From positions 1 through 7,548 of the forward strand of contig JAUWOI010000199.1 of NCBI GenBank assembly GCA_030612185.1: 7,548 bases of DNA, read 5' to 3'. The DNA is from Anaerolineae bacterium. GTDB lineage: Bacteria; Chloroflexota; Anaerolineae; B4-G1. Position 1 is the stretch's first letter, and each line of letters begins with the position of its first letter. The notes beneath the pieces are model-generated. The model had not been told where the DNA came from and did not search any database. It was given only the letters and a program-made list of their open reading frames with translations. Shown piece after piece: positions 2 through 7,335 of the stretch. A program made the position numbers and the translations under genes.

Positions 2-901
2 GCCGTTAACTGGCGTCAGGCGCGGGGCGTGGAGCGCGCCTGCGGGTCCGACGCGCTGTGGGCCTTGAGGTCGCACCTGCCGCCCGGACTGCGCCTCAGG
101 TTGGCCCTGCACCGCTCCCCGCGTGCGCTGCGCCGCGTGGCGCTGCCACTGGCTGGCACGTTGGTGGGAGCCTCGATTATTGCCCTGATCGTCGGGGGGC
201 CGCGCTGGCTGACGCCCAAGCCAGAGGTCGAATGGGTGGACGTGCCCGCCGGCGAGTTCCAGATGGGCAGCGACGAAGGCTACAGTGACGAACAGCCGGT
301 ACACCGGGTGGCGCTGGACCCCTACCGCATCAGCAAGTACGAGATCACCCACGCCGAGTACGCTCAGTGCATGCGCGCCACGGTCTGTGATGAGCCAGAG
401 GGGCTTCAGGCCTATTCTGACCCGGACTACGCCGATCACCCGGTCGTCTACGTCTCCTGGTACGACGCGCAAGATTTCTGCCAGTGGAGCGGAGGTAGGC
501 TGCCGACGGAGGCGGAGTGGGAGTACGCGGCGCGAGGGACCGATGGCCGGATATATCCCTGGGGTAACGATTCACCCATGCCTGAACTATGCAACTATGC
601 CAACAGCCTCAGTGACACCACGCCGGTGGGCCGGTATTCGCCCCAAGGCGATAGCCCCTATGGCTGTGCGGACATGGCGGGCAACGTCTGGGAGTGGGTA
701 GCTGATTGGGACGGCAACTACCCTTCCCAGGCGCAGACGAATCCTACTGGCCCGGAGACGGGAAACTACAAGGTGTTGCGTGGCAGCTCGTTCAACTACC
801 ATGTGACGTTCATCCGCGCGGCCTACCGGCTCAGCTACTCACCCGGCTCTCGCGTCTCCTACGTCGGTTTTCGGTGTGGTGCTGTTCTGCCAGGACAGTG
901 A
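2..901 (+). CDS. FGE-sulfatase/C-type-lectin-fold protein, DGR variable protein 1 (5' partial)
   Basis: The frame is open from the window edge, so the true start probably lies upstream; a GTG at 29 is the first possible start inside the window but has no convincing ribosome site. After an Arg-rich stretch comes one hydrophobic segment (137-199), likely membrane-spanning. From about 225 to the end lies an FGE-sulfatase (SUMF1-like) domain, recognised by VPAGEFQMGS, YVSWYDAQDFCQW, GGRLPTEAEWEYAARG, DMAGNVWEWVADW and the terminal GFRC. The last 41 residues before PGQ are variable repeat VR1. The domain lacks the cysteine pair that true formylglycine-generating enzymes carry near RGGSW, so it is probably a binding scaffold, not an enzyme. 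With a membrane segment before it, the lectin tail may face outward or sit near the membrane; topology cannot be decided. The missing N-terminus could carry a STAND, kinase or other signalling module as in gene 7/8. Confidence 0.85.
   Translation, partial: AVNWRQARGVERACGSDALWALRSHLPPGLRLRLALHRSPRALRRVALPLAGTLVGASIIALIVGGPRWLTPKPEVEWVDVPAGEFQMGSDEGYSDEQPVHRVALDPYRISKYEITHAEYAQCMRATVCDEPEGLQAYSDPDYADHPVVYVSWYDAQDFCQWSGGRLPTEAEWEYAARGTDGRIYPWGNDSPMPELCNYANSLSDTTPVGRYSPQGDSPYGCADMAGNVWEWVADWDGNYPSQAQTNPTGPETGNYKVLRGSSFNYHVTFIRAAYRLSYSPGSRVSYVGFRCGAVLPGQ
137..199 (+). other. Predicted transmembrane segment
   Basis: About 21 residues, rich in Ala, Leu, Ile, Val and Gly, follow an Arg-rich stretch and precede the FGE-type domain. 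By the positive-inside rule the Arg-rich side would be cytoplasmic and the FGE/VR1 domain would be outside the cytoplasm. This is judged by eye, not computed. Confidence 0.6.
770..892 (+). repeat. DGR variable repeat VR1
   Basis: Ungapped 123-nt match to the template repeat at 1413-1535. Nineteen of the 33 TR adenines are replaced here by T, C or G. Only one of the 90 non-adenine positions differs (785: A here, G in the TR). The changes concentrate in AAC/AAT codons of the TR, giving Tyr, Phe, Leu, Ser, Val, His and Gly, while the framework residues RGxSF, IRAA, SP and GFRCGAVLP are kept. The last 29 nt (864-892) are identical to the TR and correspond to the initiation-of-mutagenic-homing region at the 3' end of DGR repeats. 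It encodes the C-terminus of the first FGE-type protein. Confidence 0.95.
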
Positions 902-902
902 G

Positions 903-924
903 TTTCTGGATTTCTGGGTTCTGG
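903..924 (+). repeat. TTCTGG short tandem tract after VR1 gene
   Basis: Three imperfect TTTCTGG/TTCTGG units begin one base after the stop codon. A longer version occupies the same place after the VR2 gene (7078-7106). The tract therefore belongs to a 3' cassette shared by both variable genes. Confidence 0.6.
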
Positions 925-941
925 ACTACTGAAAGGGGGAT

Positions 942-995
942 CTGGGGGGAATCCCCCCAGGATTGAACTGCGCGTAGCGCAGTCGCGACCGGCGG
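942..995 (+). repeat. Double-hairpin cassette, copy 1 (downstream of VR1)
   Basis: Hairpin A is CTGGGGGG (942-949) paired with CCCCCCAG (953-960), a perfect 8-bp stem. Hairpin B is ACTGCGC (967-973), loop GTA, and GCGCAGT (977-983), a perfect 7-bp stem. CGCGACCGGCG (984-994) follows. Copy 2 at 7280-7335 keeps both stems, the GTA loop and the trailing block. Two base pairs of stem B differ by compensatory change on both arms. DGRs often carry a GC-rich hairpin or cruciform just downstream of the VR that aids retrohoming; here stem A begins 50 nt after the VR end. A transcription terminator (TTTTT follows at 996-1000) or a dispersed palindromic repeat are the alternatives. Confidence 0.7.
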
Positions 996-1015
996 TTTTT
1001 CCGAGTTTGCTTTTA

Positions 1016-1036
1016 TCACGCATCACGTTTCACGCT
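1016..1036 (+). repeat. Three tandem TCACGNN heptamers before the RT remnant
   Basis: TCACGCA, TCACGTT and TCACGCT lie end to end and abut the ATG at 1037. No Shine-Dalgarno sequence is visible ahead of that ATG. The function is unknown; they may be a simple intergenic repeat. Confidence 0.5.
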
Positions 1037-1447
1037 ATGAAAACCTACAAAAATCTCTACCCGCAAATCTATGATTTTGGCAACCTCTACACCGCCTATC
1101 GCAAGGCTCGTAAGGGCAAGCGCAGTCGCGCGGCCGTCGCCAGCTTTGAGTTTGACCTGGAGCACAATCTGTTGGCATTGCAAAATGAGCTGCGCGATCA
1201 GACCTACTATCCTGGCCCTTACCATAACTTTTACATCTATGAGCCTAAACAGCGGCTGGTGAGCGCTGCCCCTTTCCGCGACCGGGTGGTGCATCACGCG
1301 CTTTGTAAAATCATCAAGTACTTTCCCTCCATCGACCACCAGATTATGCGCAGCCTGCTCGCCCGCCGCATCGCTGACCCACAAGCAATGTGGTTGATCG
1401 ACCAAATTCTCAAAGGTGTTGCGTGGCGGCTCGTTCAACAACAATGA
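1037..1447 (+). pseudogene. DGR reverse transcriptase remnant (internally deleted, 3' truncated)
   Basis: The first ~93 residues match the N-terminus of DGR-type group II-like reverse transcriptases: MKTYKNLYPQIYDFGNLYTA, an AxxGKRxR-like segment, a PGPYHNFYIYEPKQRLVSAA region and FRDRVVHHALCKII. The sequence then jumps to KYFPSIDHQIM (residues 94-104). In intact relatives a stretch of roughly 45-50 residues containing the S/YACRxGKGTHRA-like motif and the first catalytic Asp (CDIxKYFPSID) stands between these blocks; it is missing here. After LIDQIL (residue 125) the homology stops and the frame enters the template repeat, ending in an artefactual [10 protein letters not shown] tail. The QGxPxGN, YxDD and thumb regions are all absent. 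The product cannot be an active polymerase. The total of 136 codons compares with about 300-400 for the family. The ATG at 1037 matches the usual N-terminus of the family. Confidence 0.85.
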
Positions 1448-1535
1448 GACGAACATCCGCGCGGCCAACCGGAACAACAACTCACCCGACAATCGCAACA
1501 ACAACATCGGTTTTCGGTGTGGTGCTGTTCTGCCA
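1413..1535 (+). repeat. DGR template repeat (TR)
   Basis: 123-nt template with 33 adenines, 30 of them in the central 24 codons, which are dominated by AAC/AAT codons when read in the VR frame (virtual residues [19 protein letters not shown] and onward). It aligns without gaps to VR1 and VR2, and almost all differences fall at its adenines. It is non-coding in the RT-remnant frame, which stops inside it at 1445-1447. In working DGRs this region is transcribed as an RNA and copied with random incorporation opposite adenine. Its 3' flank (AGAGAGTTCCTC) differs from the GGAC(A/G)GT that follows the VRs, as expected for TR versus VR ends. Its 5' boundary coincides with the end of RT homology, so the TR may have lost some 5' sequence. 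Confidence 0.93.
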
Positions 1536-1668
1536 AGAGAGTTCCTCAAAGGCCAGGTGCGCCTCGTTTAAGGACGCGGCGCTAGTGCCGAGAGAGAAAA
1601 AGTCCAATCTGAAATTTCGGACCTGTTCCCGGTTGGGCTTGCGGGATCGGCTCAACCAAAGATAAAGC
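1536..1668 (+). other. Spacer after TR, nothing firm
   Basis: No gene is supported here. A weak inverted repeat, GGTTGGGC (1631-1638) against GCTCAACC (1650-1657), could form a 7-of-8-bp stem. The 3' part of the DGR transcript may extend into this stretch. Confidence 0.4.
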
Positions 1669-1731
1669 GGCCCCGCCCTGTGTGGTAGGTCTTGAGCTTT
1701 GGGCAAGGGATTCGAAGCTCAGGGCGGGGCC
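1669..1731 (+). repeat. Perfect 12-bp inverted repeat upstream of the SIR2-caspase gene
   Basis: GGCCCCGCCCTG (1669-1680) pairs perfectly with CAGGGCGGGGCC (1720-1731). An inner GAGCTT (1694-1699) / AAGCTC (1715-1720) overlaps the outer arm by one base, so the two stems compete slightly. It ends 34 nt before the ATG at 1766. No T-run follows, so it is not a typical terminator. It may be a small palindromic repeat or a 5'-leader structure affecting expression of the operon. Confidence 0.55.
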
Positions 1732-1750
1732 ACCAATTGTGGGCAAACAC

Positions 1751-1756
1751 GAGGAG
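1751..1756 (+). promoter_or_regulatory. Ribosome binding site of the SIR2-caspase gene
   Basis: GAGGAG lies 9 nt before ATG 1766. It favours this start over the in-frame upstream starts near 1682, which lie inside the inverted repeat region and encode no recognisable domain. Confidence 0.65.
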
Positions 1757-1765
1757 CAAGACTCT

Positions 1766-3400
1766 ATGGCCGCATCCCATATCCCAGAACTGGCCGAAGC
1801 ACTACAACGTCGCACCCTGGCCCTTTTCATCGGCGCCGACCTCCCCCGCGAGGTCACCGGCCTGCCCAGCCGTGCCGACCTGGCCCGAGAACTGGCCCGC
1901 CGCAAAGGGCTGGATCACTCCCTCTCGCTGGCCGAGGTCGCCCAACGGGTGGCCCGGTCCGGCAACCGCTGGGAGTTCACCGCCGTCATCCGCGATGCTC
2001 TCGATACCGCCGGCAAGCCTCCGTTGCCCTTCCACCAGCGCATCGTCGAGCTGGTCAAGACGCACCAGATCAAAACCCTCATCACCACCACCTACGACAA
2101 CCTGCTCGAGCTGGCCTTCCGCGAAGCTGGCGTCCCCATAAACCGCGTCGCGCGCGGCAGCGACGTAAGCTTCATCAACCCCGACCGGCCCACGCTTATC
2201 CAACTCTACGGCGACGCCGGGCAGCCCGACACCCTCGTCGTCACCGAGGACGATCATTATGGCCTATGGCGCGACCGGGACAAGGAGGACCTGCTGGACG
2301 AAGTGCGCAACGTGCTGCGCAAGCAAACGATCCTGTTTCTGGGCTACAACCTCTCCGACCCCGATTTTAACCTGCTGTGGCGCGAGGTGCTGGACCGGGC
2401 GGGCCGCTTTGCCCGCACCGCCTACGCCGTCTGGCCTGACCTGCCGGAATCGGACGCTCAAGTGTGGCGCGACCGGGGCATCGTCATTCTGGACACCGAC
2501 CCCCTGGGAATCCTGGGCGAGAGCGCCCCGCAGCCCGTGCCGCTTGGCCGCCCGGAAGCGACAGTCCCGGTGTCCAAGGGTGAGGGCGAGCCATCCGGCC
2601 CACAGCCAACCTACGGCGCTGGCAACCGTTGGGCCGTGCTCGCCGGCGTGGACGAATACCAGGACGGGACCAACTATGGCAAGTTGCAGGTCTGCGTCAA
2701 GGACGTGGAAGCGGTCCACGAACAACTCGTCACCGGCGGCTTTGACCCGCCCCGCATCCGTCTGCTTCCCGACCACACCGCCGAACATCCCACCAAGGCC
2801 AACATCCTGGTCGCCCTCAAGGCCGTCGCCGACGCCACCGAGCCCGACGACCTGCTGCTCTTTTACTACAGCGGCCACGGCGACGAGCACGGCGGCGAGT
2901 CCTACCTGGTTGCCCAGGACGGTCGGCGGCTGGTGCTAAAGGACACCGCCGTGCCCCTCTCACGGGTGCGGGAGATCGTACAAGAGGCCCCCGCCCGCGC
3001 CAAGGTCATCGTCCTCGACGCCTGCCACTCTGGTGCCGACATCGGCGGCAAGGGGCCAAAAAAGATGTCCGCCGAGTTCGTCCGCCGTGTCTTTGAGGAG
3101 GCCGAGGGGTTGGCGGTGCTGGCCTCGTGCAAAAAGGGGCAACTGAGTTACGAGTGGCGCGATCCTGAGAAGGAGCGCAGCGTCTTTACCCACTTTCTCC
3201 TGGAGGCCCTCACCGGCGAGGCCGACCGGGATGACAAGGGATTCGTCACCGTGCAGGACGCCAGCCGCCACGTCACCGACGGTGTCAAGCTGTGGGCCAG
3301 CCAGCGTAACCTCAGCCAGACGCCCACCTTGCAATATACCGTGGCGGGTGATATTATTCTGGTTACCGTTCAAGGAGCACGAGAGACAAATGACGATTGA
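1766..3400 (+). CDS. SIR2-like domain / caspase-like (peptidase C14) fusion protein
   Basis: 544 residues. The N-terminal ~260 residues form a SIR2-like (SIR2_2 type) Rossmann domain: LFIGADLP (20-27), ITTTYDNLLE (from 106), LYGD (147-150) and GYNLSDPDF (from 193). The Asn and His used for NAD hydrolysis in defence SIR2 proteins (TNYD and HG motifs) are Thr109 and Tyr148 here, so NADase activity is doubtful. After a linker, about residues 290-540 form a caspase-like fold: WAVLAGVDEYQD at its start, FYYSGHG with catalytic His371, and LDACHSG with catalytic Cys420; both are intact. It is likely a cytoplasmic protease effector or processing enzyme. In bacterial conflict systems, caspase-like domains coupled to sensors cleave partner proteins or trigger cell death. 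It starts the unit 1766-7076 and overlaps the next gene by 11 nt. Its substrate is unknown. Confidence 0.92.
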   Translation: MAASHIPELAEALQRRTLALFIGADLPREVTGLPSRADLARELARRKGLDHSLSLAEVAQRVARSGNRWEFTAVIRDALDTAGKPPLPFHQRIVELVKTHQIKTLITTTYDNLLELAFREAGVPINRVARGSDVSFINPDRPTLIQLYGDAGQPDTLVVTEDDHYGLWRDRDKEDLLDEVRNVLRKQTILFLGYNLSDPDFNLLWREVLDRAGRFARTAYAVWPDLPESDAQVWRDRGIVILDTDPLGILGESAPQPVPLGRPEATVPVSKGEGEPSGPQPTYGAGNRWAVLAGVDEYQDGTNYGKLQVCVKDVEAVHEQLVTGGFDPPRIRLLPDHTAEHPTKANILVALKAVADATEPDDLLLFYYSGHGDEHGGESYLVAQDGRRLVLKDTAVPLSRVREIVQEAPARAKVIVLDACHSGADIGGKGPKKMSAEFVRRVFEEAEGLAVLASCKKGQLSYEWRDPEKERSVFTHFLLEALTGEADRDDKGFVTVQDASRHVTDGVKLWASQRNLSQTPTLQYTVAGDIILVTVQGARETNDD

Positions 3401-3794
3401 CGATTACGCTCAAGCACAGGCGTTGATGCGCGAGATGGAAGCCCAGTTACCCATCCCCGTCCGGGTGACTAAAGAATTTGTGCGCGTAATGAGGCCACAC
3501 GGCCTGCAAGTCAAGCGTGACCAGGCGCTATCTATCAAGAGTTTGTTTTATGCCGGTGACGAGGGTGGGATCACGTGTGATGTGACGCCGCCGGAGGCAC
3601 ACACGGCCATCGTCTGCTCGCTCACGCAGGTCAGGATCGCCCCCGACCACCCCCTGGCCGAGGAAATTCGGGCCTATCAAAAAGCGCGGAAAGAGGGAAT
3701 AGCCCAAGAGGGCCGCATATCAGGCTCTGCCTTTATCCCACCGAGCCAAAAAGCCGGACCGCGCAAGAAGAAACGCCGCAGACGGCGACGTTGA
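3390..3794 (+). CDS. Small protein of unknown function with basic C-terminal tail
   Basis: 134 residues, family not recognised. The start ATG lies inside the end of the SIR2-caspase gene (11-nt overlap), with AAGGAG at 3372-3377, which indicates translational coupling. The first ~110 residues look globular and mixed alpha/beta, with no signal peptide or membrane segment. The C-terminus is an extremely basic run of Lys and Arg (last ~12 residues nearly all K/R), suggesting nucleic-acid or acidic-partner binding. It sits between two SIR2-type signalling genes. It is not the DGR accessory protein Avd by appearance: there is no four-helix pattern and it is distant from TR/RT. A substrate or adaptor of the caspase-like enzyme is conceivable but unsupported. 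Confidence 0.75.
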   Translation: MTIDDYAQAQALMREMEAQLPIPVRVTKEFVRVMRPHGLQVKRDQALSIKSLFYAGDEGGITCDVTPPEAHTAIVCSLTQVRIAPDHPLAEEIRAYQKARKEGIAQEGRISGSAFIPPSQKAGPRKKKRRRRRR

Positions 3795-3838
3795 ACCGGC
3801 ACAAACACGGCGTTCGACGCATTGCTATTTACATTGTC

Positions 3839-3843
3839 GGAGG
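3839..3843 (+). promoter_or_regulatory. Ribosome binding site of the SIR2-nSTAND gene
   Basis: GGAGG lies 5 nt before ATG 3849. It decides for ATG 3849 over the in-frame TTG at 3822, which has no such site. Confidence 0.7.
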
Positions 3844-3848
3844 ACCCA

Positions 3849-5807
3849 ATGACCAAAAACACACAATCTCCCGGCCTCATCCCGGACCAACTGTTGAACA
3901 ACATCAAAAAGGGCGACTGCGTGCTCTTCCTGGGGGCCGACCTGCCCCTGGGCTACGAGGGCGCGCCCCTCAGCCGCCCCGAACTGGCCGCTGCTCTGGC
4001 CGCCAAGTACGACCTGCCGGAGAACAATCCCTGGCCCGAGACCGCACAGACATACCTGGGCAAGTACCCCAATGACCGCAACGGTCTAGTCCGCTTTCTC
4101 CTGGATAACGTAACGGGTCCAGACGCGCGCCCTGGGCCGCTGCACCAGGCCATCGCTCAGGCCGGGTTCCGTGCCATCGTCACCGCCTGGTACGATGAGC
4201 TGCTGGAACAGGCACTGCGTGATGCCGGGTATCGTGTCAACCGGGTGGTGCGTGATGCGCAGTTGCCCTACGCCCGCGAGGGAGAACGCGAGGCCATCGT
4301 GGTCAAGCTGTACGGTTGTCTCAGTGACCATGAATCACTGGCACTGGACACCTGGGACCATCAAGAGTTGATGGATCGGCTAAGCCGCAAGCTAGAACTG
4401 GTCACCGCCTTTTGCTCATTACGACCACCGCTTTTCGTTGGCTTTAACCTGTCCAGCGACACACCGAAACGCCTCTACGTGCGGGCCTCGACCAATATGG
4501 TCGCGCACATGCGGCGGGCCTATGCCGTGTGGCCTCACTCCCTCGACGCCGTACAGGCGGCCTGGCAGGGCAAGAACGTCGAGTTTGTCCGGGCCGACGC
4601 TGCAGCCTTTCTGGAGACACTGGCCGGACAGTTGCCGTCTGTGAGGCCCGCTGCCAGGGGAGCCGTCCACGTCAACCGTCCGCCCTACAAATTCCTCGAC
4701 TATTACGGTTCCCAGGACGCCGACATCTTTTGCGGGCGCGATATCGAGAGCCAGATCGTGGCCCGCCTGGTGCTCTCTCACCGCCTGCTGACGCTCTTTG
4801 GCCCCTCCGGCGCGGGCAAGACCTCCCTACTACTGGCGGGCGTGGTGCCGCGCCTGGCTGCCGAGGACTATCAGCACGTCTACGTCCGCGCCCTGGACGA
4901 CCCACTCCCCGCCCTGCGCAAGGCTATCGCCGCCCGTGCCGGCCGTGCCGACTGGGAATCCGGGGGTGATCTCTGTGCCTTTCTGTCATCCATCCTGGCG
5001 GAAAAGGACCGGCTGGTGGTCGTTTTGGACCAGTTCGAGGAACTCTTTCTGCGCGTGGGGAGCCGCCAGCGAGCGGCCTTTTTCGACGAACTGGCCGGGG
5101 CTTTGGCCCAACCCGAACGGGACGTGCGCTTTATCTTTAGCCTGCGCGAGGACTATTTGGCCCGCCTGGACGAGGCCCGCCCCTGCCTGCCCGACGTCTT
5201 TGCCAATAGCTTTCGGCTGGCGACGCTGGACCAGGCCAACGCGCGCGTGGCCATCACGGAACCGGCGGCCCGCGCCGGGGTCAAGGTCGATGCCGCCCTG
5301 GTAGCTGCCCTCGTCGGCGGCGAGGGCCGGGACCGAGGCGATCAGCGGGCCGGGGACCTGGTCGAAGCGGATGACCGCGTATCCTACGTGCCGCCCGCCG
5401 CGCTGCAGATCGTGCTCGACCGGCTGTACCGAGAAGCGCTGCCCCTGGACCATCCCCCGGACGGCCCGCCCCCGCCTGGCCTGGAACTGACGCTGGACGT
5501 CTACCGCGCCATCAGTCACCGGCTGGGCGAGAGGGCAGCGGTCGAGGACTCTGTCCTGCGCCCGTCGAAGGAACTGACTGGCGCCAAGGCCATTCTGGCC
5601 GGTTACGTGGGCGAGGGATTGAGGCGCTTGCCCGGCCTGACGCAAGCGGACGGCCGCACCCCGCTGGGCGCTGACCCGGCATTGGGCCGCGAGGTCCTCA
5701 AAGTGATGGTCACCAGCCAGGCGACCAAGGCGGCGCTGGCTCACACCGAGATATTGGAATGGCTGGACGAGGCCGGCGTCGTTCGAGCCGGTGACGAGGC
5801 GGATTGA
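3849..5807 (+). CDS. SIR2-like / nSTAND NTPase signalling protein (N-terminal part of a split gene)
   Basis: 652 residues. Residues ~10-270 form a second SIR2-like domain, clearly related to the one in 1766-3400: LFLGADLP (26-33), TAWYDELLE (around 112-120), KLYGC (to 157) and GFNLSSD (from 198). The NADase Asn and His positions are Trp114 and Tyr155, so it is probably not a hydrolase. From ~285 comes a novel-STAND (nSTAND1-type) P-loop NTPase: FCGRDIE entry motif, Walker A GPSGAGKTS (318-326), Walker B VVVLDQFEEL with Asp394 and Glu397/398, and SLREDYLARL (from 431). The C-terminal helical part stops at TGA 5805-5807 within the STAND accessory region. The same frame continues beyond with typical nSTAND sequence (RLLRGFER, YELAHDHLAAEI). 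The intact ancestor would be ~1075 residues, SIR2-STAND-HEAT-FGE/VR. The likely role is an ATP-dependent switch coupling the variable lectin sensor to an effector. Confidence 0.9.
   Translation: MTKNTQSPGLIPDQLLNNIKKGDCVLFLGADLPLGYEGAPLSRPELAAALAAKYDLPENNPWPETAQTYLGKYPNDRNGLVRFLLDNVTGPDARPGPLHQAIAQAGFRAIVTAWYDELLEQALRDAGYRVNRVVRDAQLPYAREGEREAIVVKLYGCLSDHESLALDTWDHQELMDRLSRKLELVTAFCSLRPPLFVGFNLSSDTPKRLYVRASTNMVAHMRRAYAVWPHSLDAVQAAWQGKNVEFVRADAAAFLETLAGQLPSVRPAARGAVHVNRPPYKFLDYYGSQDADIFCGRDIESQIVARLVLSHRLLTLFGPSGAGKTSLLLAGVVPRLAAEDYQHVYVRALDDPLPALRKAIAARAGRADWESGGDLCAFLSSILAEKDRLVVVLDQFEELFLRVGSRQRAAFFDELAGALAQPERDVRFIFSLREDYLARLDEARPCLPDVFANSFRLATLDQANARVAITEPAARAGVKVDAALVAALVGGEGRDRGDQRAGDLVEADDRVSYVPPAALQIVLDRLYREALPLDHPPDGPPPPGLELTLDVYRAISHRLGERAAVEDSVLRPSKELTGAKAILAGYVGEGLRRLPGLTQADGRTPLGADPALGREVLKVMVTSQATKAALAHTEILEWLDEAGVVRAGDEAD
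5805..5807 (+). other. In-frame TGA splitting the SIR2-STAND-HEAT-FGE gene
   Basis: Codons before (GDEAD) and after (ESIKNTRLGLER) are in one frame, and protein homology to nSTAND proteins continues across. A single C-to-T change of CGA (Arg) would create it. TGA is also the terminator of the genes ending at 901 and 3400, so a reassigned code is unlikely. No selenocysteine context is evident. A nonsense mutation, programmed readthrough or a sequencing error remain possible. Confidence 0.7.
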
Positions 5808-5843
5808 GAGTCGATAAAGAACACCCGCCTGGGCCTGGAGCGG

Positions 5844-7076
5844 GTGCGCTTGTTGCGCGGTTTTGAACGGGATAGCGTGGCTCTCTACGAACTGGCCCAC
5901 GACCACCTGGCGGCCGAGATCGCCACCTGGATCAGTGAGGAGGAGATGGGGGCCAAGCTGGCGCGTGAGTTATTGCGACGAGCGATGGACAACTGGCTTG
6001 GGGCCAAGTTACTTGTTCAGCCGGAGGTGCTGGCCCTGATCCACGAGCGGCGTGAAGAGTTAAAGCGGCTGGCGAGCGGTGAACTGGAACTCTTGTTCCG
6101 CTCCGCGTTGGGCGCGGGCTACGAGGCCGCCTACTGGACCCAACGCGCCCACGCGGGCGGCGTGCCGGTGGACGAGATATTGCTGGCAGGGTTAAAGGAC
6201 GATAATTTCCACACCCGCGCCGCCACCCTGAACGTCCTGGGCCAGTTGGGAGAGCGGCGATTCGTCGAGCCGAGCATAGAGAGGCTGGAGGACGATTATC
6301 CCCAGGTGCGTATGGCCGCCATCCGGGCATTGGAAAAGCTGCGCCCTGATGGAGAATGGCGAGAACGATTGGTGTACGAGTGCTACGTCCCGGCGGGGCC
6401 GTTCATTATGGGGGATGATAACGGCGAAAGCAGCGAGAAACCGGCTCACGAGGTAACCCTGGACGCCTTTTACACCGGCAAGTACCCGGTCACCAACGCT
6501 GAGTATAAACGGTATACGGATGACGCCGGGCGTCCATTCGAGATTCTAGAGGTGAAAGAGCGCCACCCGGTGGTCAACGTCTCCTGGTTCGACGCCTGCG
6601 ATTACGCGGCCTGGGCCGGGATGCGGTTGCTGACGGAGGCCGAGTGGGAAAAGGCGGCGAGTTGGGTCTCCCCCTCTTCCTCCCCCCCGCCGGGGGGGAT
6701 CGAGGGGGGGCAAAAGCGCAAGTATCCGTGGGGAGACAAGTTCGATAAGCACAAGTGCAACGCGAACGAGTCCGGCATTGGTACCACGACGCTGGTAGGC
6801 AAATATTCGCCGGGGGGAGACAGCCCGTATGGATGTGTGGATATGGCGGGCAACGTGTGGGAATGGGTGGCCGATTGGTATGACGGCGATTATTACGGTC
6901 GCTCGCCTTCTCAGAACCCCACAGGCCCGGAGACGGGACGCTTCAAGGTGTTGCGTGGCGGCTCGTTCTACTTCGGTGAGACAGACTTCCGCGCGGCCCT
7001 CCGGGGCCTCAACTCACCCGACCATCGCTACTGCAGCATCGGTTTTCGGTGTAGTGCTGTTCTGCCAGGACGGTAA
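5844..7076 (+). CDS. STAND C-terminal region / HEAT-like repeats / FGE-lectin domain, DGR variable protein 2 (C-terminal part of a split gene)
   Basis: 410 residues if started at GTG 5844; the frame is open from 5808, directly after the TGA. Residues 1-30 (RLLRGFER, YELAHDHLAAEIATW) are the typical end of an nSTAND module. Residues ~107-172 look like HEAT-type helical repeats (DEILLAGLKDDNFHTRAATL and RMAAIRALEKL). Residues ~177-410 form an FGE-sulfatase-type domain: VPAGPFIMGDD, VNVSWFDACDYAAW, LLTEAEWEKAA, KYPWGDKFD, DMAGNVWEWVADW, GFRC. The final part is VR2 (residues 368-408). The FGE active-site cysteine pair is absent. A short Pro/Ser/Gly-rich insert (from a G/C-run palindrome, 6670-6710) interrupts the domain after EKAASW. 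The GTG has only GGAG three bases upstream, so independent initiation is weak; the piece may need readthrough, reinitiation, or be a pseudogene half. Role inferred: hypervariable ligand-binding sensor of the STAND switch. Confidence 0.85.
   Translation: MRLLRGFERDSVALYELAHDHLAAEIATWISEEEMGAKLARELLRRAMDNWLGAKLLVQPEVLALIHERREELKRLASGELELLFRSALGAGYEAAYWTQRAHAGGVPVDEILLAGLKDDNFHTRAATLNVLGQLGERRFVEPSIERLEDDYPQVRMAAIRALEKLRPDGEWRERLVYECYVPAGPFIMGDDNGESSEKPAHEVTLDAFYTGKYPVTNAEYKRYTDDAGRPFEILEVKERHPVVNVSWFDACDYAAWAGMRLLTEAEWEKAASWVSPSSSPPPGGIEGGQKRKYPWGDKFDKHKCNANESGIGTTTLVGKYSPGGDSPYGCVDMAGNVWEWVADWYDGDYYGRSPSQNPTGPETGRFKVLRGGSFYFGETDFRAALRGLNSPDHRYCSIGFRCSAVLPGR
6670..6710 (+). repeat. G/C-run palindrome inserted in frame in the FGE domain
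   Basis: CCCCCCC (6682-6688), loop GCC, GGGGGGG (6692-6698), with an imperfect outer stem joining C-runs at 6670-6674 to G-runs at 6704-6710. It encodes low-complexity SPSSSPPPGGIEGG between conserved AASW and KRKYPWGDKF. It resembles in style, though not in sequence detail, the G/C-run hairpins at 942-960 and 7280-7300. It is probably a small palindromic repeat inserted without breaking the frame. Confidence 0.6.
6945..7067 (+). repeat. DGR variable repeat VR2
   Basis: Ungapped 123-nt match to the TR at 1413-1535. Eighteen of 33 TR adenines are substituted. Only two of 90 other positions differ (6983 and 7053, both A here and G in the TR). Variable codons partly differ from VR1 (for example Tyr-Phe-Gly here where VR1 has Asn-Tyr-His). 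It encodes the C-terminal end of the second FGE-type domain. The 3' constant block GGTTTTCGGTGT through CTGCCA carries one G-to-A change. Confidence 0.94.
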
Positions 7077-7077
7077 A

Positions 7078-7106
7078 TTTCTGGGCTTCTGGCTTCTGGG
7101 CTTCTG
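7078..7106 (+). repeat. TTCTGG short tandem tract after VR2 gene
   Basis: Four imperfect TTCTGG(G)C units begin two bases after the stop codon, the same position and unit as at 903-924 after the VR1 gene. Confidence 0.6.
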
Positions 7107-7117
7107 TTTCCCCTGGG

Positions 7118-7274
7118 CTACTAAAGGTACTGTTGGCTAACCCCTTCCGGTGGGGCAAGAATGCGGTTTTTCAGGTCATTTTGACTGTTCAGTGGGGAAT
7201 TACTTCACTAAAAGGGCGTTCTTGTGGGGTCTCATCCCTAGAAAACCGAGTTCGCCAACAGCATCTACTAAAGG
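7118..7274 (+). mobile_element. MITE-like element (7128-7264) with 10-bp flanking direct repeats
   Basis: CTACTAAAGG occurs at 7118-7127 and again at 7265-7274, enclosing 137 bp. The enclosed piece has terminal inverted repeats: CTGTTGGCTAAC (7130-7141) against GTTCGCCAACAG (7250-7261), 11 of 12 complementary. A subterminal CGGTTTT/AAAACCG pair is also present. The matching region after VR1 (926-942, CTACTGAAAGG...) has one uninterrupted copy, i.e. the empty site. No coding capacity is evident, so mobilisation would need a transposase elsewhere. Confidence 0.7.
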
Positions 7275-7279
7275 GGGGT

Positions 7280-7335
7280 CTGGGGGGAAAATCCCCCCAG
7301 GAGTGAAACCGTGCGTAGCACGGTCGCGACCGGCG
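7280..7335 (+). repeat. Double-hairpin cassette, copy 2 (downstream of VR2)
   Basis: Hairpin A is CTGGGGGG (7280-7287), loop AAAAT, CCCCCCAG (7293-7300). Hairpin B is ACCGTGC (7308-7314), loop GTA, GCACGGT (7318-7324). CGCGACCGGCG (7325-7335) follows. Relative to copy 1, a T-A pair became C-G and a C-G pair became T-A in stem B, so the pairing is conserved and the sequence is not. Here the cassette lies ~210 nt after the VR because of the MITE-like insertion. Confidence 0.7.

What the first reader, a model, noticed from the sequence alone, without database searches (positions are those of the whole stretch)
770..7067. Diversity-generating retroelement with one template and two variable repeats in FGE/lectin-type tails
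Seen directly: TR 1413-1535 aligns without gaps to VR1 770-892 and VR2 6945-7067 (123 nt each). Of 20 TR/VR1 differences 19 are at TR adenines; of 20 TR/VR2 differences 18 are at TR adenines. Substitutions go to all three other bases. Known: adenine-specific divergence between a coding VR and a nearby AAC-rich TR is diagnostic of DGR retrohoming, and C-type-lectin-fold/FGE domains are standard targets. The two targets lie ~6 kb apart, one fused to a STAND signalling module.
Basis: partly seen in the sequence, partly recalled or inferred. Interest (0 to 1): 0.95.

Follow-up and report, generated by a model that had tools for sequence, protein, structure and literature searches.

The report
Mutation-generator remnant that lost its engine
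This contig, likely from a Chloroflexota bacterium, carries one template and two adenine-diversified copies in sensor-type (FGE) genes, but only a shortened piece of the reverse transcriptase and no helper gene, so its likely defence sensors are probably frozen unless a sister element elsewhere in the genome still rewrites them.

Summary
The TR/VR observation is correct: TR 1413-1535, VR1 770-892 and VR2 6945-7067 align without gaps; 19 of 20 and 18 of 20 differences lie at TR adenines. The reverse transcriptase before the TR (1037-1411) is a 125-aa remnant: 44 codons including the motif-A aspartate are missing, and at codon ~169 it runs straight into the TR, so the rest of RT and the bAvd-like gene that intact relatives carry between RT and TR are absent. 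The TR and its ~200-nt structured RNA are kept. Target 2 is interrupted by an in-frame TGA (5805-5807), so the STAND-FGE fusion is split here. VR/TR identity outside adenines is 98-99%, so homing was recent. Best reading: a recently decapitated DGR locus over a SIR2/caspase/nSTAND1-FGE island, frozen or served in trans, like published degenerate loci of Thiohalocapsa PB-PSB1. Side finding: an array of CTG every 7-8 nt follows both VRs and all 22 Chloroflexota VR flanks detected in fetched loci (window's two included); wider tests show it enriched but neither universal nor exclusive.

The parts
2..901 (+). Target 1: 5'-truncated gene, hydrophobic segment plus FGE-sulfatase domain holding VR1
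   Evidence: Pfam FGE-sulfatase 3.6e-59
770..892 (+). VR1
   Evidence: 19 of 20 differences at TR adenines
903..931 (+). CTG array after VR1 (TTTCTGG ATTTCTGG GTTCTGG ACTACTG)
942..982 (+). Two GC-rich hairpins after VR1 (942-960 and 968-982), candidate target-recognition elements
   Evidence: sequence; repeats D3/D8; role by analogy with PMC3240598
1037..1411 (+). Reverse-transcriptase remnant, 125 aa: residues corresponding to L001 RT 94-137 missing, then cut at codon ~169 into the TR
1413..1535 (+). Template repeat (TR), AAC-rich
1533..1735 (+). Structured RNA downstream of TR, conserved with L001 (2 copies), L002 and L082
1766..3400 (+). SIR2-like (ThsA-like) plus caspase (Peptidase_C14) protein
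   Evidence: searched as ORF 1682-3400
3390..3794 (+). Small 134-aa protein, no match in Pfam or PADLOC
3849..5807 (+). SIR2-like plus nSTAND1 protein, ends at in-frame TGA 5805-5807
   Evidence: searched as ORF 3822-5807
5808..7076 (+). Target 2: same frame continued after the TGA; HEAT repeats plus FGE domain holding VR2; possible own start near 5844-5850
6945..7067 (+). VR2
   Evidence: 18 of 20 differences at TR adenines
7078..7106 (+). CTG array after VR2
7118..7274 (+). MITE-like insert (7128-7264, 137 nt) flanked by CTACTAAAGG copies, with imperfect inverted ends, separating the VR2 array from its hairpins
7280..7323 (+). Two GC-rich hairpins downstream of VR2 (7280-7300 and 7309-7323), homologous to those after VR1
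   Evidence: repeats D3/D8; sequence

Best explanation
The window holds one template repeat and two adenine-diversified variable repeats of a diversity-generating retroelement, together with only a truncated reverse transcriptase and no avd-like gene, so it is likely a recently inactivated (decapitated) DGR locus of a Chloroflexota bacterium. Shown: the A-specific TR/VR pattern, the RT remnant, the absence of an avd-like ORF between it and the TR, and the retained TR-downstream RNA. Inferred: the ancestor had the order VR gene - RT - avd - TR - RNA, as in seven intact relatives; RT-Avd copied the TR RNA with random bases at adenines and the cDNA replaced the end of both FGE genes, re-shaping the predicted sensor face. 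Two deletions, likely through short microhomology, then removed 44 RT codons and about 1.0 kb from RT codon ~169 to the TR start. Without RT and Avd the locus cannot diversify itself; the VRs are most likely frozen (about 60:40 against a sister RT-Avd acting in trans on the retained TR RNA). The targets and the SIR2/caspase/nSTAND1 genes between them are predicted to form a conflict (anti-phage type) system with FGE sensors.
For: TR/VR statistics. Alignment to intact RTs L001 and L002 shows the gap over the motif-A aspartate and nothing after QIL, so GLPIGNLTSQ and YMDD are missing. Of nine Chloroflexi-labelled loci with a full-length RT, seven (L001, L003, L004, L006, L007, L009, L010) gave a detectable VR upstream and TR downstream of RT; L002 (RT at the contig start) and L005 gave none in that scan. 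A bAvd-like ORF lies between RT and TR in all seven and in L082, the locus closest in TR/RNA. RT start to TR is 1,536 nt (L082), 1,490 (L001), 1,493 (L002) and 376 here. The downstream RNA is structured: 92.7% of cells paired against 89.3% in shuffles, 11 pairs with changes on both sides against 4.7 (5 sequences). Similar decay elsewhere: 3 of 12 Chloroflexi-labelled RT loci are broken (L011, L032, L034); P0249 and P0274 run from the RT 5' third into what reads as a translation of the downstream RNA; L001 holds a second RNA copy with only the 3' end of a TR. Domains.
Against: The genome is not held, so a sister RT-Avd cannot be excluded; 98-99% non-A identity, and a TR without private change, would also fit continuing homing in trans. 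The remnant keeps an open frame, so the loss is recent or the junctions are assembly faults. The remnant is seen only in this contig (P0241, 1 member). RNA support is from 5 related sequences, the count of further pair types did not exceed shuffles (107 of 500 as high) and the RNAalifold covariation term was slightly unfavourable (+0.28). The taxon is inferred from relatives.
Confidence: 0.8

Rival explanations
1. Degenerate but still active locus: a second DGR elsewhere in the genome supplies RT and Avd in trans, using this TR RNA (or its own matching TR) to keep rewriting VR1 and VR2.
For: TR and ~200-nt RNA are retained; VRs match the TR at 89/90 and 88/90 non-A sites. Trans activity is inferred for DGR 4 and 5 of Thiohalocapsa PB-PSB1 (PMC10907252, section 8 read). 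Targets on another plasmid work in the reconstituted BPP-1 system (PMC12875486 passages).
Against: P0001 carries the identical VR2 although other residues differ. The avd 3' end upstream of the TR, a motif of which terminates reverse transcription in BPP-1, is gone here. A MITE-like insert separates the VR2 array from its hairpins.
Confidence: 0.33
2. Assembly artefact: the contig joins pieces of an intact DGR, and RT and avd are present in the real genome.
For: The window is a whole 7,548-base contig, presumably metagenomic; one junction lies at the edge of a sequence present three times (TR/VR1/VR2).
Against: Only a few bases of possible homology at each junction, less than usual assembly k-mers (recalled); two separate junctions inside RT; other truncated RTs fused to the RNA exist in other contigs.
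Confidence: 0.12
3. The A-biased differences arose without a DGR, by ordinary divergence of duplicated FGE domains.
For: FGE domains are numerous in these genomes: 24, 19, 57 and 40 matches in the genomes.
Against: 37 of 40 differences fall on TR adenines while 177 of 180 non-A comparisons are identical; VR1/VR2 similarity outside the repeat is lower, 79% over the neighbouring 94 nt.
Confidence: 0.01

Closest known systems
Degenerate DGR loci of Thiohalocapsa sp. PB-PSB1 (PMC10907252: abstract, section 4 part 1 of 3, sections 8 and 12, and passages seen)
   Same: DGR targets with STAND (nSTAND1) and FGE/CLec domains near peptidase genes; loci where RT is missing or broken while VRs remain; MITE-like sequences at the loci.
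   Different: Here the TR and its RNA remain and RT plus avd are missing through deletions that end at the TR, in a likely Chloroflexota contig; no intact sister locus is known because the genome is not held.
BPP-1 type DGR (RT, Avd, TR, spacer RNA, VR with IMH and stem-loop; PMC3240598 and PMC12875486, passages seen)
   Same: A-specific TR/VR differences, structured RNA 3' of TR, GC-rich hairpins 3' of VR.
   Different: No RT, no Avd; TR lies after the RT remnant instead of between avd and RT; CTG array between VR and hairpins.
Intact Chloroflexota DGRs L082 (G064) and L001
   Same: FGE target with VR, same downstream RNA; L082 also has the G-rich element after the VR.
   Different: Full-length RT (first codons of L082 RT hidden in an N run) and a bAvd-like ORF between VR and TR.
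NTP-dependent conflict systems of multicellular prokaryotes (PMC7159879; search listing only)
   Same: By recall: effector, STAND-type and FGE domains combined in one island.
   Different: Membership of a named subtype not tested.

Membership tests
Diversity-generating retroelement | TR/VR pair with differences concentrated at TR adenines | tested here: met
Diversity-generating retroelement | DGR reverse transcriptase with catalytic motifs at the locus | tested here: not met
   motif-A Asp, GLPIGNLTSQ and YMDD absent
Diversity-generating retroelement | Accessory protein (Avd) at the locus | tested here: not met
   bAvd-like ORF present between RT and TR in 7 of 7 relatives, absent here (Avd named by recognition, no family search)
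Diversity-generating retroelement | Structured RNA 3' of TR | tested here: met
Diversity-generating retroelement | GC-rich hairpin 3' of VR | tested here: met
   sequence 942-982 and 7280-7323; function not tested
Diversity-generating retroelement | Ongoing variation of VR in a population | not testable with these tools
   no reads; one near-identical protein has the same VR2
Degenerate DGR locus as in PB-PSB1 | VR matches a TR at non-A sites while RT is missing or pseudogenized | tested here: met
   (89/90 and 88/90)
Degenerate DGR locus as in PB-PSB1 | Complete DGR of the same class elsewhere in the genome | not testable with these tools
   genome not held
FGE / C-type-lectin-fold target | FGE-sulfatase domain spanning the VR | tested here: met
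   3.6e-59 and 3.5e-51; VRs lie at its C-terminal end; fold itself not modelled

The most novel reading that the evidence does not exclude
The TR plus its structured RNA persists as a stand-alone donor served in trans by a sister RT-Avd, and a clade-specific address label, an array of CTG every 7-8 nt followed by GC-rich hairpins just 3' of the VR, is how Chloroflexota DGRs recognise dispersed target genes; the array would then reveal remote targets genome-wide.
Probability: 0.2. Interest if true: 0.7.

Novelty: new member of a known kind. Interest (0 to 1): 0.45.

Why it matters
It shows that a clean TR/VR signature is not proof of an active DGR: the copying machinery can be missing while template, RNA scaffold and both targets stay. 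It adds a likely Chloroflexota case to the degenerate DGR loci described in Thiohalocapsa and gives a direct test of whether RT-less loci are frozen or served in trans. The CTG array, if confirmed, would be a target-site feature that I did not see in the passages examined of three DGR papers nor in the titles and abstract starts listed by searches; full texts were not screened for it.

Tried and rejected
Ordinary FGE paralogue divergence: rejected by the A-only pattern. Rfam: one hit below its gathering score (Pab91, 27.8 bits against 71) on the GC-rich hairpin 6668-6713; treated as chance. Viral origin: 7 viral-contig relatives, best 61% over 94 residues; not pursued. Near-identical strain data: only P0001; one search aimed at a second copy of VR1 or of the RT remnant, and among the 120 listed only the window's own remnant was identical; no VR1 protein was listed, so VR1 strain variation is untested.

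CTG array as an exclusive or universal DGR mark: rejected. First set (G007, G008, G009; 35 of 43 FGE matches, the other 8 being TRs or partial domains): of 18 FGE genes with non-A identity to an own-genome TR of 0.69 or more, 14 have a run of 4 or more CTG; of 17 below, none (P 1.6e-6). The 0.69 cut was chosen after seeing these data, and some sequences used as TR are TR-like matches not verified by an RT beside them. Second set, same cuts, six further genomes picked by me among those with a TR match (51 of 97 FGE matches given; one, L193, dropped for a 47-nt flank; seven with a locus but no complete C-terminus left out; the rest had no locus or were TRs): 5 of 15 against 3 of 35 (P 0.04). Pooled 19 of 33 against 3 of 52 (P 1.5e-7). 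The simple pattern occurs in 135 of 396 genomes of the class of G001; by hand tally, in 44 of the 67 genomes with a TR/VR-like DNA match (some of these matches are under 45 nt) and 91 of the 329 others (P 1e-8). Some genomes without such a match hold dozens of copies, and the backward control pattern is also frequent in some genomes, so part of the arrays are generic heptad repeats. In one search, 45 pairs became 43 because identical flanks were merged; some of the 22 Chloroflexota flanks come from one genome. The first scan script found nothing, even in the window, and was replaced. The downstream RNA is not widespread by DNA similarity: 3 of 396 genomes, one of them weak.
Full report
OBSERVATION. 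TR against VR1 differs at 20 positions, 19 of them TR adenines; TR against VR2 at 20, 18 of them TR adenines; substitutions go to all three bases; hypergeometric P is 1.5e-12 and 8.4e-11. A blind ungapped scan of the window reports only these two pairs. Outside adenines the VRs match the TR at 89 of 90 and 88 of 90 sites and the TR has no private change, so the last homing into either gene was recent. In the VR frame only 1 of the 41 TR codons (the first, AAG) could become a stop by A>N.

GENES. VR1 ends a 5'-truncated gene with an FGE-sulfatase domain (3.6e-59). Between the VRs lie a SIR2-like/caspase protein, a 134-aa protein without a match in Pfam or PADLOC, and a SIR2-like/nSTAND1 protein; VR2 ends a HEAT/FGE reading frame. 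The nSTAND1 and HEAT/FGE parts are in one frame but separated by a TGA at 5805-5807. P0026 carries nSTAND1, HEAT and FGE in one protein and aligns to both pieces in order, so the gene is probably split in this lineage. P0001, from an ENA contig, also begins just after this point (408 aa), which suggests, without proving, that the split is not a private sequencing error.

MACHINERY. The ORF at 1037-1411 aligns to intact DGR RTs, 78% identical to L001 over aligned residues, with the columns for L001 residues 94-137 missing (including the GDI of motif A) and nothing after QIL at residue ~169. Among the proteins listed the closest longer RT over the first 90 residues is P0135, 91%. Of nine Chloroflexi-labelled loci with full-length RT, seven (L001, L003, L004, L006, L007, L009, L010) show VR just upstream of RT and TR downstream; L002 and L005 gave no pair in that scan. 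A bAvd-like ORF (SPIFVKTYDFLLWL...GQYEHAARL...; named by my recognition, not by a family search) lies between RT and TR in all seven and in L082. RT-start-to-TR is 1,536 nt in L082 (start placed from its eighth codon, the first ones being in an N run), 1,490 in L001, 1,493 in L002 and 376 here: about 1.1-1.2 kb is missing. Both junctions lie on a few matching bases (ATCATC against ATCGTC at the first; AAA, or more if the lost RT read ILKGG as L003 does, at the second), which fits microhomology deletion; this is inference.

RETAINED RNA. Directly after the TR, window 1533-1735 is conserved with L001 (two copies, one preceded only by the 3' end of a TR), L002 and L082. The consensus fold has 56 pairs; 92.7% of cells pair (shuffle mean 89.3, 0 of 500 as high), 11 pairs change on both sides (mean 4.7, 1 of 500), slid versions pair at 29-47%; the number of further pair types does not stand out (107 of 500 as high) and the RNAalifold covariation term is +0.28. 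A covariance model of the first 118 positions, searched over 75 loci, gives 26 rows up to E 1, including the sequences it was built from, duplicates and antisense hits; new ones lie right after the TRs of L004 (8.5e-6), L056 (0.009) and L053 (0.01) and after a TR-like match in L080 (2.3e-4). By plain DNA similarity the RNA occurs in 3 of 396 genomes of the class. In BPP-1 the spacer RNA after the TR recruits RT-Avd and primes cDNA synthesis (PMC12875486, passages); the same role is inferred here.

RECURRENT DECAY. Of 12 Chloroflexi-labelled RT loci read (L001-L007, L009-L011, L032, L034), three are broken (L011, L032, L034). Two metagenome proteins, P0249 and P0274, start as this RT and after about 102 residues continue with a sequence (ARCAGFTDAAL...) that matches the translation of the downstream RNA in L082; I infer that they lost RT end, avd and TR, but their DNA was not seen and they may share one event. 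Degenerate DGR loci are already described in Thiohalocapsa PB-PSB1, with trans activity inferred for DGR 4 and 5 and no variation seen at DGR 1 (PMC10907252). The present locus is therefore a new member of a known kind.

HOW IT LIKELY WORKS. When complete, RT-Avd would have copied the TR RNA with random bases opposite adenines, and the cDNA would have replaced the 3' end of both FGE genes, altering the exposed face of the FGE domain, a predicted sensor tied to SIR2, caspase and nSTAND1 effectors. In cis, copying is no longer possible. Whether a sister RT-Avd still serves the TR cannot be told without the genome. P0001 has the same VR2 while differing at three residues in the stretch coded by the GC-rich hairpin 6668-6713, plus the start residue: mildly in favour of a frozen state.

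TARGET-SITE FEATURES. After each VR stop codon stands an array of CTG at 7-8-nt spacing and, further on, two GC-rich hairpins (942-960, 968-982; 7280-7300, 7309-7323). In VR2 a 137-nt MITE-like insert between CTACTAAAGG copies separates array and hairpins. All 22 Chloroflexota VR flanks detected in fetched loci, the window's two included, have at least 4 CTG in 70 nt (mean 6.0; shuffled 1.45; TR flanks 1.2), against 1 of 21 flanks of other taxa (L036). The pattern search of six genomes gave 14 distinct places; 11 follow FGE C-termini, 3 do not; several of the 11 are VRs already known. Controls on FGE genes: 14 of 18 TR-like against 0 of 17 others in three genomes (cut chosen afterwards), but 5 of 15 against 3 of 35 in six more, and 135 of 396 genomes hold the pattern, 91 of them without a TR match. 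The array is thus enriched at DGR targets but neither universal nor exclusive; a role in homing is a hypothesis. Hairpins 3' of the VR are required for efficient homing in BPP-1 (PMC3240598, passages).

VERDICT. Observation confirmed; interpretation partly supported: DGR-derived, but lacking RT and Avd here, with one target gene split and one target site interrupted.

Noticed in passing
903-931 and 7078-7106: CTG every 7-8 nt just 3' of both VRs; at least 4 CTG in 70 nt after all 22 Chloroflexota VRs detected in fetched loci (window's two included); enriched at TR-like FGE genes, weaker on replication.
   Followed up: yes
7118-7274: MITE-like 137-nt insert with 10-bp direct repeats CTACTAAAGG and imperfect inverted ends, between the VR2 array and its hairpins.
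   Followed up: partly
5805-5807: In-frame TGA splits the nSTAND1 and HEAT/FGE parts of target 2; P0001 from another contig begins just after it.
   Followed up: partly
6668-6713: GC-rich palindrome inside the FGE coding region of target 2; the only place where P0001 differs apart from its start residue.
   Followed up: partly
L001:11036-11250: Second copy of the DGR RNA, 95% identical over 206 nt, with only the 3' end of a TR in front.
   Followed up: partly
P0249, P0274: RT 5' third followed by what reads as the translated DGR RNA: further RT truncations, possibly of one origin.
   Followed up: partly
L101 (G001:C32): FGE gene followed by a CTG array and a GC-rich hairpin, with a stop inside its VR-like region.
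   Followed up: no
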